Part shown: one piece after another, positions 934 to 51,153 of the stretch
Layout of the letters: each line of letters starts with the position of its first letter
Numbering within the stretch: position 1 is the stretch's first letter
Assembly: GCA_017404145.1 (NCBI GenBank)
Contig: JAFRCW010000040.1
Location: forward strand, 62,001-126,000
Reading direction: 5' to 3'
Length of the DNA stretch: 64,000 nucleotides
Source of the DNA: Ruminococcus sp.
Lineage (GTDB): Bacteria > Bacillota > Clostridia > Oscillospirales > Acutalibacteraceae
Notes under the pieces: model-generated
Databases searched by the model: none
Seen by the model: only the letters and a program-made list of their open reading frames with translations
Told to the model about the DNA's origin: nothing
Program-made: the position numbers and the translations under genes

Positions 934-1659
934 TTATGAAGAGACAAGATCCTTGATGACTTCTCCCGCAAGGATCAGTCCCGCGACTGGGGGAACGAAG
1001 GCGACCGAGCCGGGGGCGGGTCTGCCCGCGACGCTTCCCTTATCCTCATAAGCGTTTTCTTCATCATAGGAGGGGGAAAGCGCTTCTTCCTTCGAATAAA
1101 CCACTTTCAGTTTATCAATTCCGCGCTTTTTCAGCTCTCTGCGCATCACTCTGGCGAGGGGACAGACAGAGGTAGAATAGATATCCGCAACCTCAAAGCG
1201 GGTGGGATCGAGCTTGTTGCCCGCGCCCATCGAAGAGATGATCGGAACGCCCGCTTGGTCTGCTCTTTCGACCAGAGTAAGCTTTGCCGCGACGGTATCG
1301 ATCGCGTCGATGATATAGTCATAGAGGGAAAGATCGAAACGGTCGGCGTTCTCCTTGGTATAGAAGGCGTTATATACCGTCACCGAGCAGGAGGGGTTGA
1401 TATCAAGGATCCGCTCCCTCATCACATCGCATTTATCCTTTCCCAGCGTACTGTGCAGGGCGATGATCTGGCGGTTGATGTTCGAGAGGCTCACGGTATC
1501 GTGATCGATCAGGTCGATCGCGCCGAGTCCCGAACGCGCGAGCGCCTCAGCGGCATATCCGCCTACCCCGCCGACGCCGAATACCGCGACGCGGGCGTTT
1601 TTCAGTTTTTTGATTCCCTCAGCGCCGAGCAGCAGCTGAGTCCGTGAAAATTCGTTCAT
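934..1659 (-). CDS. tcdA: tRNA threonylcarbamoyladenosine dehydratase (TcdA/CsdL, ThiF fold)
   Basis: This is a 241-residue E1-like/ThiF-superfamily protein. It adenylates N6-threonylcarbamoyladenosine in ANN-decoding tRNAs to form the cyclic hydantoin derivative. The N-terminus MNEFSRTQLLLG matches the family, followed by the ATP-binding loop VFGVGGVGGYAAEAL and the LIDHDTVSLSNINRQ region. The Met at 1659 is chosen because family members begin just before FSRTQ; the reading frame itself is open 22 codons further upstream, without a ribosome site. It is followed by a strong terminator, and hydE lies upstream on the same strand. Membership in the E1 fold is noted because an E2-like gene occurs at 49 kb, but TcdA acts on tRNA and needs no ubiquitin-like partner. 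Confidence 0.88.
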   Translation of the reverse strand: MNEFSRTQLLLGAEGIKKLKNARVAVFGVGGVGGYAAEALARSGLGAIDLIDHDTVSLSNINRQIIALHSTLGKDKCDVMRERILDINPSCSVTVYNAFYTKENADRFDLSLYDYIIDAIDTVAAKLTLVERADQAGVPIISSMGAGNKLDPTRFEVADIYSTSVCPLARVMRRELKKRGIDKLKVVYSKEEALSPSYDEENAYEDKGSVAGRPAPGSVAFVPPVAGLILAGEVIKDLVSS

Positions 1660-43905: not shown

Positions 43906-43924
43906 ATTGAAAGGACAAAACATA

Positions 43925-44836
43925 ATGAAACTGATCGTAGCAGTTGATGAAAACTGGGGCATCGGCAAAAAGGGCGACCTTTTAAAGTCGATCCCCGACG
44001 ATATGAAATTTTTCCGCGAAACCACCAAAAGAGCGATCCTTGTCATGGGCTACAACACCCTGCTGTCCTTCCCCGGCAGCAAGCCCCTCCCCGGCAGGCT
44101 CAACATTGTGCTTGCCGATATCCCCGAGCTGCAGATCCCGGGCGTGGTGGTCTGCAACACGATGGATCAGCTGCTCTCGCTGCTCGAGAACTTCTGCTCG
44201 GACGACGTCTATGTGATCGGCGGCGGGATGATGTACCGCCAGCTGCTGCCCTACTGCGATACCGCGCTGATCACCAAGATGCGCTTTTCGGGCGACGCGG
44301 ACACCTTTATCCCGAACCTTGACGAGCTGCCCGAATGGAGCGTCAAGTCAGAGTCCGAGATAATGGATTATGAAGGGTTGAAGTTCTCTTTTGTAGAGTA
44401 CCGTAATTCCTCCCCCAATGCGCTTGCTTTCCGTTCTTTTGACAAGGATATCACAGAAGTGTTTGCCTCCAAAAAGGAGATCGAGTTCAATTATATCGAT
44501 TGCAAAGGAAGCTACCGGTCTGACTTGCGTGACCTGCTCGAACGATACTTCTATCCGATCAGAGACGGCGTAGCGCCGACGGACGTCCGTTTTTTCCTGA
44601 TGACAAGTACAAAAGAGGAGAAGAGCTCCTTCGGTCAACTCCTGTATTTCAAGCGCCTGACAGCGAGCGAAGCGGATTTTCAGAAGCTGAATGACCGCTA
44701 TCGGGACGAAGATGACTGCACCGGCAGAGCGTGTCCGGTTCGCGTCAAAAAGTCCGAGCTTGACGAATTTATCACATTCATCAATAAAGCTGCCTTTGAA
44801 GACGTCACAGCAAAATTCAAGGCAGATAAACCATAA
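43925..44836 (+). CDS. folA: Dihydrofolate reductase with unusual C-terminal extension
   Basis: 303 residues from ATG 43925 (AAAGGAC). Residues 1-160 are a full DHFR: VAVDENWGIGKKGDLLKSIPDDMKFFRETT, MGYNTLLSFPGSKPLPGR, VYVIGGGMMYRQLLPYCD, FSFVEYRN. It reduces dihydrofolate released by ThyA. Residues 161-303 form an extra domain (FNYIDCKGSYRSDLRDLLERYFYPIRDG, VRFFLMTSTKEEKSSFGQLLYFKRL) not part of normal DHFR (about 160 residues). The extension carries no recognised motif and could be a regulatory or partner-binding domain. Confidence 0.9.
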   Translation: MKLIVAVDENWGIGKKGDLLKSIPDDMKFFRETTKRAILVMGYNTLLSFPGSKPLPGRLNIVLADIPELQIPGVVVCNTMDQLLSLLENFCSDDVYVIGGGMMYRQLLPYCDTALITKMRFSGDADTFIPNLDELPEWSVKSESEIMDYEGLKFSFVEYRNSSPNALAFRSFDKDITEVFASKKEIEFNYIDCKGSYRSDLRDLLERYFYPIRDGVAPTDVRFFLMTSTKEEKSSFGQLLYFKRLTASEADFQKLNDRYRDEDDCTGRACPVRVKKSELDEFITFINKAAFEDVTAKFKADKP

Positions 44837-48970: not shown

Positions 48971-48999
48971 TTGACAACTAAGCAGCGGCGTGTTATATT
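48971..48999 (+). promoter_or_regulatory. Promoter of the E2-like gene (twin 1)
   Basis: TTGACA (48971-48976), 17-bp spacer, TATATT (48994-48999). The block TTGACAACT...TGTTATATTGTAG...AAAACA is shared with 49630-49658. Confidence 0.7.
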
Positions 49000-49030
49000 G
49001 TAGCGGGAAAACACAAAAGGAGTGAACGTT

Positions 49031-49606
49031 ATGCCGACCAAAAGAGAAGAACGCTTGGCACAGGATTATGATGAAATGATGAAGATTCAGGATCGACCGT
49101 ATCTCTCATGGGTCGCGACAAAAGGAGAGCTTCCCTGCGCGGAGGAATATCTTCTGACCGTCAGGCTCAGGACCTATGCGCTTTGTGCGAAAGACGGCAG
49201 ATATACCGTCGGCGCTGTGCGTCGGTGTACAATCAGGGTAACGCTGTGGGATTCTTATCCCGCTGTCGCTCCGAACATCAAGATGCTCAGTATCCCTCCG
49301 GTGTTTCATCCCAACTGGTATTCGAAAGGCACCTACTGTCCCTTAGAGCCGTGGCGTCCGGAGGATTCGCTGAAAGACTACATCAAGCAGATGATCCTCA
49401 CGCTCCTGTATGAGCCGTCTCTGATCGAGACCGCTGCTCCGGCAAACTACAAAGCGCTGGAGTGGTATAATAAGAATCGGGATAATGATGCGCTGTTCCC
49501 CTGCGACAGGATCGAGCTCAGCGAAAATGATCCGCAGGAGCTTGCCGCCTTAGAAAAAGCCGCCGCGACCTTTGAGGAGATCGTTGACAGCCGGGCGTTC
49601 GGATAG
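49031..49606 (+). CDS. Bacterial ubiquitin-conjugating enzyme (E2/UBC)-like protein
   Basis: 191 residues; ATG 49031 lies 8 nt after AAAGGAG. The UBC core spans about residues 5-150. The signature order is that of eukaryotic E2s: a beta meander with TIRVTLWDSYPAVAPNIKM, then PPVFHPN (H93-P94-N95), then the candidate catalytic Cys103 in SKGTYCPLEPW. The Asn-to-Cys distance of 8 residues equals that in classical E2 enzymes. Helical DYIKQMILTLLYEP and ETAAPANYKALEWY follow, matching the E2 helix with the A..Y end. A 40-residue helical tail (161-191) is extra. No E1-, ubiquitin- or deubiquitinase-like gene adjoins it. Its substrate and partner are unknown. The stop codon is TAG. Confidence 0.85.
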   Translation: MPTKREERLAQDYDEMMKIQDRPYLSWVATKGELPCAEEYLLTVRLRTYALCAKDGRYTVGAVRRCTIRVTLWDSYPAVAPNIKMLSIPPVFHPNWYSKGTYCPLEPWRPEDSLKDYIKQMILTLLYEPSLIETAAPANYKALEWYNKNRDNDALFPCDRIELSENDPQELAALEKAAATFEEIVDSRAFG

Positions 49607-49629: not shown

Positions 49630-49658
49630 TTGACAACTGATTTTTCCTGTGTTATATT
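49630..49658 (+). promoter_or_regulatory. Promoter of the small ORF (twin 2)
   Basis: TTGACA (49630-49635), 17-bp spacer, TATATT (49653-49658), with the same flanking words as the E2-like gene promoter. Confidence 0.7.
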
Positions 49659-49706
49659 GTAGGCAAGAAAACAGAGAGGCACATACCTTTCGGAAAGGAA
49701 ATTCAA

Positions 49707-49841
49707 ATGTTCAACATTCGTTTTGTTAACACCGTAATCGAATATCTGCATCTGGGTATGCTCCGCGATTATCGCGAGGGTTCTGGTTCCTTATGCTCAT
49801 ATGAGATCGGTAAAACAAAATGGTTGGACGTGTCTGATTGA
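49707..49841 (+). CDS. 44-residue ORF downstream of the E2-like gene
   Basis: ATG 49707 follows GGAAAGGAA. Sequence starts MFNIRFVNTVIEYLHLGMLR and ends TKWLDVSD. No family was recognised and no Gly-Gly end is present, so it is not a ubiquitin-like modifier. It is followed after 29 bp by a terminator hairpin whose loop repeats the palindrome CTCATATGAG found in the ORF, so it could be a regulatory leader rather than a functional protein. Confidence 0.5.
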   Translation: MFNIRFVNTVIEYLHLGMLRDYREGSGSLCSYEIGKTKWLDVSD

Positions 49842-50224: not shown

Positions 50225-50299
50225 ACGGGGTTAGTGTAGTGGAAGCACGATAGACAGAAAGAGCTATAAGGACAGGTTCGAATCCTGTACCCGGTACCA
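50225..50299 (+). tRNA. Degenerate tRNA-like sequence with encoded CCA, anticodon unclear
   Basis: The acceptor arms ACGGGGT/ACCCGGT pair at 6 of 7 positions. The D arm is GTGT...GCAC and the T arm ACAGG-TTCGAAT-CCTGT is intact. A plus CCA closes it. The anticodon arm (ATAGACAGAAAGAGCTAT) is one nucleotide too long, and no position gives U33 with a normal 7-nt loop. Probably a tRNA pseudogene or tRNA mimic. Confidence 0.55.
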
Positions 50300-50306
50300 T
50301 CAACAC

Positions 50307-50383
50307 GGCTCGGTAATTCAAAAGAGCAGAATACCTGACTGTCTATCAGGAGGTTGCGGGTTCAAGTCCCGTCCGAGCCGCCA
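50307..50383 (+). tRNA. tRNA-Asp (GTC)
   Basis: GGCTCGG/CCGAGCC acceptor, G73, CCA encoded. Anticodon stem CCTGA/TCAGG with loop CTGTCTA (anticodon 50341-50343). The D loop (ATTC-AAAAGAGCA-GAAT) lacks the usual GG pair. Its 3' end (from 50371) is duplicated at 50575. Confidence 0.85.
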
Positions 50384-50427
50384 TATCAATCAAAAAACGA
50401 TATACAAGCGGAATCGGACGGGATTTG
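50371..50427 (+). repeat. 57-bp direct repeat, copy 1 (includes tRNA-Asp 3' end)
   Basis: Begins GTCCGAGCCGCCATATC inside tRNA-Asp and ends GGACGGGATTTG. It is identical to 50575-50631. Confidence 0.85.
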
Positions 50428-50574
50428 AAGGCGACCGTGCCAAGGCTCAAGCGTGCGAAGAGCCGCAGGTAAAAATGATTCGGCGAATCATTTTTAGGGA
50501 GAGCGCAGAAGTCACTTTTCGAATCTGACCTTGGCAACAAGCGAGGTAGTTTTTATCCAACAAATAAAGACAAC
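50428..50574. other. 147-bp segment between the 57-bp repeats
   Basis: No gene. It contains a hairpin AAAAATGATT-CGGCG-AATCATTTTT (50471-50495). The segment may be the remnant of a small insertion or of a larger excised element at the tRNA-Asp end. Confidence 0.5.
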
Positions 50575-50631
50575 GTCCGAGCCGCCATATCAATCAAAAA
50601 ACGATATACAAGCGGAATCGGACGGGATTTG
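50575..50631 (+). repeat. 57-bp direct repeat, copy 2 (duplicated tRNA-Asp end)
   Basis: Exact copy of 50371-50427, displaced by 204 bp. Only the last 13 nt of the tRNA (with CCA) are present, as at attachment sites of tRNA-targeting elements. Confidence 0.85.
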
Positions 50632-50667
50632 TTTGGTGGACCCCGAAATATTATAAAAAAATAAAAT

Positions 50668-50741
50668 GGGTCGTTGGTGTAGTGGAAGCACGGTAGTTTG
50701 TGGCACTATCAGCGCAAGTTCGATTCTTGCACTTCCCTCCA
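50668..50741 (+). tRNA. tRNA-His-like (anticodon GTG)
   Basis: Anticodon stem GTAGT/ACTAT with loop TTGTGGC, anticodon GTG; T arm GCAAG-TTCGATT-CTTGC; CCA at 50739-50741. The acceptor stem GGGTCGT/ACTTCCC has two mismatches, and neither G-1 nor C73, the main histidine identity elements, is encoded (T at both). Possibly not charged normally. Confidence 0.65.
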
Positions 50742-50748
50742 AATGAAT

Positions 50749-50824
50749 GCTGCGATGATGGAATGGCATACATATACGGCTAAGAACCGTAGTTCTGAGA
50801 GTTCAAATCTCTCTCGCAGCACCA
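50749..50824 (+). tRNA. tRNA with Leu anticodon (AAG) but class I fold
   Basis: Perfect acceptor GCTGCGA/TCGCAGC, A73, CCA. D arm ATG/CAT with GG in the loop; anticodon stem TACGG/CCGTA with loop CTAAGAA (anticodon 50782-50784). T arm GAGAG/CTCTC. The variable loop is only 5 nt (50792-50796), whereas bacterial tRNA-Leu has a long variable arm. Confidence 0.75.
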
Positions 50825-50829
50825 AATAT

Positions 50830-50901
50830 GGCCCCTTGGTCAAGCGGTTAAGACATCAGATTTTCAATCTGGGATCGTGGGTTCAACTCCCGCAGGGGCT
50901 A
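50830..50901 (+). tRNA. tRNA-Glu (TTC)
   Basis: GGCCCCT/AGGGGCT acceptor, A73, no encoded CCA. Anticodon stem TCAGA/TCTGG with loop TTTTCAA. Body matches ordinary Firmicutes tRNA-Glu (TTGGTCAAGCGGTTAAGACA). Confidence 0.85.
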
Positions 50902-50909
50902 CTACTATG

Positions 50910-50998
50910 GGTAGGTAGAAGCGTAATTGGAAGCGCCGCGGACTGTAACTCCGTCGCCCGTTTGGGTCTTGCCGGTTCAAGTCCAGCCCTGCCTACCA
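50910..50998 (+). tRNA. tRNA-Tyr (GTA)
   Basis: GGTAGGT/GCCTACC acceptor, A73, no encoded CCA. Anticodon stem GCGGA/TCCGT, loop CTGTAAC. Long variable arm CCCGTTTGGG as expected for Tyr. One T-stem mismatch (GCCGG/CCAGC). Confidence 0.8.
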
Positions 50999-51001
50999 TA
51001 T

Positions 51002-51073
51002 GGCTCCTTAGTCAAACGGTTACGACGTCGGATTCTCAATCCGAAGATGTGAGTTCAACTCTCGCAGGAGTCA
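51002..51073 (+). tRNA. tRNA-Glu (CTC)
   Basis: GGCTCCT/AGGAGTC acceptor, A73, no encoded CCA. Anticodon stem TCGGA/TCCGA with loop TTCTCAA. It reads GAG only; a second Glu isoacceptor in the same array. Confidence 0.82.
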
Positions 51074-51079
51074 TCATAC

Positions 51080-51153
51080 GACTCGGTAGTTCAATTAGGC
51101 AGAACGCCTGATCGCCTGTCAGGAGGTTGCGGGTTCAACTCCCGTCCGGGTCT
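51080..51153 (+). tRNA. Asp-like tRNA body with GCC (Gly) anticodon
   Basis: Acceptor GACTCGG/CCGGGTC; D and T arms as in tRNA-Asp. Perfect stem CCTGA/TCAGG (51107-51111 with 51119-51123) encloses loop TCGCCTG, giving anticodon GCC with C instead of U at position 33. Position 73 is T and no CCA is encoded. Charging and decoding are both doubtful. Confidence 0.65.

What the first reader, a model, noticed from the sequence alone, without database searches (positions are those of the whole stretch)
48971..49606. Orphan bacterial E2 (ubiquitin-conjugating)-like enzyme
The 191-residue protein keeps the E2 layout: YP...P strand, HPN at 93-95, Cys103 exactly eight residues after Asn, then the Leu-rich helix and the A..Y end. 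Known bacterial E2-like proteins sit in operons with E1, modifier and protease genes (for example CBASS Cap2-type and Bil-type systems). This one has its own promoter and no such partner adjacent, so its modifier, E1 and target are open. It could belong to an undescribed conjugation or non-catalytic system.
Basis: partly seen in the sequence, partly recalled or inferred. Interest (0 to 1): 0.85.

Follow-up and report, generated by a model that had tools for sequence, protein, structure and literature searches.

The report
Retired E2 enzyme kept without partners
A Ruminococcus-related bacterium carries a lone protein with the fold of a ubiquitin-conjugating (E2) enzyme, but its relatives often lack the catalytic cysteine and the genome has no detected partner genes, so it is probably a former conjugation enzyme now used for something else.

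Summary
In detail: window 49031-49606 (+) encodes a 191-aa protein with HPN at 93-95 and Cys103, its own promoter and no partner gene nearby. AlphaFold2 (pLDDT 91, pTM 0.85) gives a UBC fold; PDB matches are E2 enzymes (Z about 13). The genome (100% complete) shows no dedicated E1 (only two TcdA-type ThiF proteins), no JAB and no YukD-like modifier.

What changes is the reading. Across 29 stand-alone members from one genus, 45 of 190 columns are invariant, yet Cys103 is Ser in 7 and Asn95 is replaced in 17. The Ser codons fall in two classes (AGY, TCG), so the cysteine was probably lost at least twice. No cysteine is invariant. The gene is under purifying selection (dN/dS 0.08-0.23 in close pairs) and nearly universal in one subclade.

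Divergent relatives that keep the cysteine sit in E1/Ubl/E2/JAB operons: one genome of the same genus (plus a second, Cys-less E2-like gene), one of another genus, and a Crinalium plasmid.

Best explanation: a bacterial operon E2 that lost its cascade and was kept as a largely non-catalytic UBC-fold binding protein, as eukaryotic UEVs are. Ligand and function are inferred. The window's own copy keeps Cys and Asn, so activity there is not excluded.

The parts
48971..48999 (+). sigma-70-like promoter TTGACA-17-TATATT with TG before the second hexamer
   Evidence: consensus scan, 11 of 12; consensus match only
49015..49022 (+). ribosome binding site AAAAGGAG
   Evidence: read from the sequence
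49031..49606 (+). stand-alone UBC-fold (E2-like) protein, 191 aa
   Evidence: Pfam PF00179, PDB sequence matches, AF2 model and fold search, 30 of 161 genomes of the genus carry it, dN/dS 0.08-0.23 in close pairs
49307..49315 (+). HPN motif (residues 93-95); Asn95 is not conserved in the family
49337..49339 (+). Cys103 codon TGT, the E2 catalytic position; Ser in 7 of 29 stand-alone members

Best explanation
The protein is a former bacterial E2. It descends from the E2 of an E1 / YukD-like ubiquitin-like modifier / E2 / JAB operon, lost that cascade in the ancestor of one subclade of this genus, and was kept as a stand-alone UBC-fold protein. The likely mechanism is binding, not thioester transfer: the conserved face around the old active site (HPxWYSKGxY, invariant W96, Y97, S98, Y102) and the conserved PAN.KA..W / FPSD / LTEN tail recognise a protein or peptide, as UEV and RWD domains do in eukaryotes. 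Shown: fold, loss of strict Cys and Asn conservation, purifying selection, no detected E1/JAB/YukD in a genome rated 100% complete, homology to operon E2s that keep Cys. Inferred: direction of evolution, loss of activity, binding function. The ligand is unknown.
For: UBC fold. Among 29 stand-alone rows 45 columns are invariant but Cys103 ranks 77th and Asn95 157th of 190, and no Cys is invariant. Ser codons AGY and TCG both occur, and the tree needs about 4 changes (bootstrap 3-5). dN/dS 0.08-0.23 for close pairs, 0.21 for a Ser-Ser pair. No dedicated E1 in 160 of 161 genomes of the genus, no JAB or YukD in the own genome. The E2s that sit in operons keep the Cys: G528/L063, G460/L111, Crinalium plasmid NC_019754.1. 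The G528 operon also has a Cys-less E2-like gene at L063 6130-6780, so loss of the Cys in this lineage has a parallel. Carriers form one subclade.
Against: 22 of 29 stand-alone members, the window's included, still have the Cys, and the window copy has the full HPN-C. Only small residues (Cys, Ser) are allowed there, which a pure scaffold need not require. Only three operon-borne E2s were compared. The rooting is uncertain (L063 rows are long branches), so an independent origin from a different operon is possible. A modifier or E1 of an unrecognised family would be missed.
Confidence: 0.6

Rival explanations
1. It is a working E2 that uses a house-keeping ThiF-family protein (TcdA) as E1 and a small modifier encoded elsewhere; Cys-to-Ser members are decayed or use an oxyester.
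For: Window copy keeps H93, P94, N95 and C103; two TcdA-like proteins are in the genome, one 47 kb away in the window.
Against: TcdA-type proteins occur with or without the E2 and the second copy in G000 groups with E2-minus genomes. Ser members are under the same purifying selection. No YukD-like modifier or JAB. ThiS/MoaD and ubiquitin families were not searched genome-wide.
Confidence: 0.15
2. It is an E2-fold protein exapted to a new enzymatic or ligand-binding job with no link to ubiquitin-like proteins, using the invariant W96-Y97-S98-K99-G100-x-Y102 patch.
For: That patch is more conserved than the Cys it surrounds; no modifier is detected.
Against: No independent evidence of a ligand; tail motifs are shared with operon E2s, so much of the conservation may be inherited.
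Confidence: 0.15
3. It works with the neighbouring zinc-dependent phospholipase-C-like protein (PF00882), a gene within 2.5 kb in 16 of the 29 loci of related genomes.
For: Proximity in several arrangements and co-occurrence: 23 of 27 carriers of that gene carry the E2.
Against: The E2-bearing genomes are essentially one subclade, so co-occurrence is expected without any link; orientation differs, and in the window's genome it lies on another contig (C34).
Confidence: 0.05

Closest known systems
E2 of bacterial E1-Ubl-E2-JAB operons (of the general kind predicted by Iyer, Burroughs and Aravind 2006, PMC1779556; examples here G528/L063, G460/L111, Crinalium plasmid NC_019754.1)
   Same: UBC fold, RL..DY start, HPN...C site, APAN..A..W.N....LFP tail
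   Different: No operon partners; Cys and Asn of the site not conserved among stand-alone members
Eukaryotic UEV / RWD proteins (Mms2, Tsg101) and the Cys-less bacterial E2/RWD-like domains of polyUbl operons (PMC1779556, Table 1 row 6e)
   Same: UBC fold retained while the catalytic Cys is lost or optional
   Different: Those act beside an active ubiquitin-like system; here no E1, YukD-like Ubl or JAB was detected. Most members still keep Cys.
SUMO E2 Ubc9
   Same: Best single-sequence PDB match (E=2e-6); Z about 13, 25% identity
   Different: Eukaryotic enzyme; lacks the bacterial tail motif; no SUMO system here
CBASS Cap2 and Bil systems
   Same: E1/E2 chemistry in bacteria
   Different: No PADLOC model matches the window protein

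Membership tests
UBC-fold superfamily (Pfam UQ_con) | sequence profile match above the curated cut-off | tested here: met
   29 bits vs 27; 26 of 31 members match at E<=0.01
UBC-fold superfamily (Pfam UQ_con) | UBC fold | tested here: met
   AF2 pLDDT 91, pTM 0.85; Foldseek prob 1.00, VIA Z 13-14 to E2s
catalytically active E2 | catalytic Cys conserved among orthologues | tested here: not met
   Ser in 7 of 29, two codon classes; present in the window copy
catalytically active E2 | HPN asparagine conserved | tested here: not met
   Asn in 12 of 29, otherwise D, A, C, G, E; present in the window copy
catalytically active E2 | cognate E1 in the genome | tested here: not met
   only TcdA-like ThiF proteins in G000; dedicated E1 only in G528 of 161 genomes
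catalytically active E2 | ubiquitin-like modifier in the genome | tested here: inconclusive
   no YukD-like Ubl; ThiS/MoaD, ubiquitin and unknown beta-grasp proteins not searched
catalytically active E2 | thioester formation on Cys | not testable with these tools
   needs biochemistry
E1-Ubl-E2-JAB operon E2 | adjacent E1, Ubl and JAB genes | tested here: not met
E1-Ubl-E2-JAB operon E2 | sequence homology to the operon E2s | tested here: met
   45% to the L063 E2; profile and BLASTP matches to the Crinalium and G460 E2s
UEV-like non-catalytic E2 variant | UBC fold without catalytic Cys | tested here: inconclusive
   true for 7 of 29 members, not for the window copy
UEV-like non-catalytic E2 variant | binds a ubiquitin-like protein or partners an active E2 | not testable with these tools
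   needs biochemistry; no second UQ_con in the own genome
CBASS Cap2 / Bil | match to the defence-system profiles | tested here: not met
   no PADLOC family at E<=0.01

The most novel reading that the evidence does not exclude
The window's copy, which keeps HPN and Cys103, is still an active E2 in a cascade made of a TcdA-family E1 and a modifier of an unrecognised family, with no operon, in a bacterium thought to have no ubiquitin-like system.
Probability: 0.12. Interest if true: 0.85.

Novelty: new variant of a known kind. Interest (0 to 1): 0.5.

Why it matters
Bacterial E2s are described as parts of operons, including operons with Cys-less E2-like domains. A UBC-fold protein kept under selection across a bacterial subclade, with no detected E1, modifier or protease and with an optional catalytic cysteine, would be a bacterial counterpart of UEVs outside any conjugation system. 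It shows how the fold can outlive the cascade and gives a small, testable case of what it does on its own.

Tried and rejected
Pseudogene or decaying remnant: rejected, dN/dS 0.08-0.23 in close pairs and 45 invariant columns. Phage or plasmid cargo: no relatives of the E2 in viral contigs, plasmids or PHROGs; carriers form one subclade. Recent gain from a eukaryote: the tail motif shared with bacterial operon E2s speaks against it, not formally tested by a tree. PF00882 partner: co-occurrence explained by clade membership. Small ORF downstream (49707-49838, 44 aa) as modifier: not found in any other locus. Defence system: no PADLOC match for the E2. Dedicated E1 from weak hits: the third ThiF hit in G000 is a malic-enzyme-like protein. 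Searches at family and order level found no close orthologue outside the genus; only the distant G460 E2.

Full report
Observation. The window at 49031-49606 (+) encodes a 191-residue protein starting at ATG 49031 with an AAAGGAG site and a TTGACA-17-TATATT promoter at 48971. Pfam UQ_con matches above its cut-off and the best single-sequence PDB match is Ubc9. A model from a 31-row alignment has pLDDT 91 and pTM 0.85. Its PDB matches are E2 enzymes, with VIA Z of 13-14 over 126-138 residues. The fold is UBC.

Surroundings. The window lies in a genome of 2.54 Mb rated 100% complete. A close relative of the protein is in an uncultured Ruminococcus MAG, so the genus is Ruminococcus-like; the genome itself is unnamed. 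The genome has a single UQ_con protein. Its ThiF hits are two TcdA-like proteins and a malic-enzyme-like one. Prok-JAB and YukD are absent, and the YukD-like modifier of a related operon has no match in it.

Distribution. 30 of 161 genomes of the genus carry the protein; samples of the rest of the family and of the order had no close orthologue. A tree of the TcdA protein, which 20 carrier rows and 58 others gave, places nearly all carriers in one subclade; the two non-carriers inside it are G063 and G023. It is a single-gene tree with many open forks. The gene is thus close to a core gene of one subclade, not a scattered element. Relatives are mostly single genes with their own promoter-like sites; a few follow another gene closely.

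The active site. In the first 17-row alignment, and then in 29 stand-alone rows, Cys103 is Ser in 7 and Asn95 is Asn in only 12. In the same set 45 columns are invariant, among them P94, W96, Y97, S98 and Y102; none is a Cys. Cys103 has 76 columns more conserved than it and Asn95 has 156. The seven Ser codons are TCG in three and AGC or AGT in four. These two classes are not one step apart, which together with the tree (4 changes of the Ser label, bootstrap range 3-5) points to more than one loss. Close pairs have dN/dS of 0.08-0.23, including 0.21 for two Ser members, so the Ser forms are not decaying.

Origin. One genome of the same genus, G528, has two divergent homologues on a 12.4-kb contig that also carries ribosomal genes. 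In order on the minus strand are an E2 with Cys (45% identical to the window protein over 156 residues), a YukD-like Ubl of 80 aa, a JAB protein, a zinc protein, a ThiF E1, small membrane and zinc proteins, a Cys-less E2-like protein, a ClpB-like AAA protein, an ATP-grasp protein and a transglutaminase-like protein. In the genus only G528 has that E1 and, with a weak exception, that Ubl. A second operon in another genus, G460, has an E1 end, an E2 with Cys, a probable JAB by its HTHPN motif, a transglutaminase-like protein, PP2C and a Ser/Thr kinase. A cyanobacterial plasmid carries ThiF, two 82-85 aa proteins, E2 and Mov34/MPN. The stand-alone family profile matches both the Crinalium and the G460 E2 and shares their A.AN..A..W.N....LFP tail. 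This supports descent from such an operon E2; the direction of change is inferred.

Mechanism. The best reading is that the cascade was lost and the UBC fold was kept as a binding module, with the face around the former active site and the C-terminal motif doing the recognition. Fold, loss of strict Cys/Asn, selection and the missing partners are shown or follow directly. The binding role and its ligand are inferred. The window's own copy retains Cys and Asn, so activity there cannot be excluded by sequence.

Comparison. Cys-less E2-like domains in bacteria are known from operons with tandem Ubls (PMC1779556), and UEVs and RWD domains are known in eukaryotes (own knowledge). What differs here is the absence of the rest of the cascade and the mixture of Cys and Ser within one orthologous family. 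It is therefore a new variant of a known kind.

Limits. Most compared genomes are MAGs with gaps and some contamination. Only three operon E2s were compared. ThiS/MoaD, ubiquitin and unknown beta-grasp modifiers were not searched for in the own genome. The literature search covered open-access papers only and found no paper on this family.

Noticed in passing
window 49630-49838: A second TTGACA-17-TATATT promoter sharing TTGACAACT and GTGTTATATTGTAG with the E2 promoter lies just after the E2 stop, before a 44-aa ORF (49707-49838) with no relative in the fetched loci.
   Followed up: partly
L063 1913-12030: A same-genus genome (G528) carries a full E1 / YukD-like Ubl / E2 / JAB operon with a second Cys-less E2-like protein, a ClpB-like AAA protein, an ATP-grasp protein and a transglutaminase-like protein.
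   Followed up: partly
L111 1-8405: Genome G460 has an E1-E2-JAB-like operon joined to a transglutaminase-like protein, PP2C and a Ser/Thr kinase.
   Followed up: no
window 937-1635: TcdA-like ThiF protein; the genome has a second copy on contig C9 which groups with other species' extra copies in the tree.
   Followed up: partly
window 50225-51153: Cluster of seven tRNA genes; the first has an odd four-base anticodon call (gaaa).
   Followed up: no
window 43907-44836: Dihydrofolate-reductase-like N-terminal part followed by an extension of about 150 residues of unknown kind (read).
   Followed up: no
L036 10498-11250 and relatives: PF00882-like zinc-dependent phospholipase C protein near the E2 in 16 related loci, clade-restricted in the same way.
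   Followed up: partly
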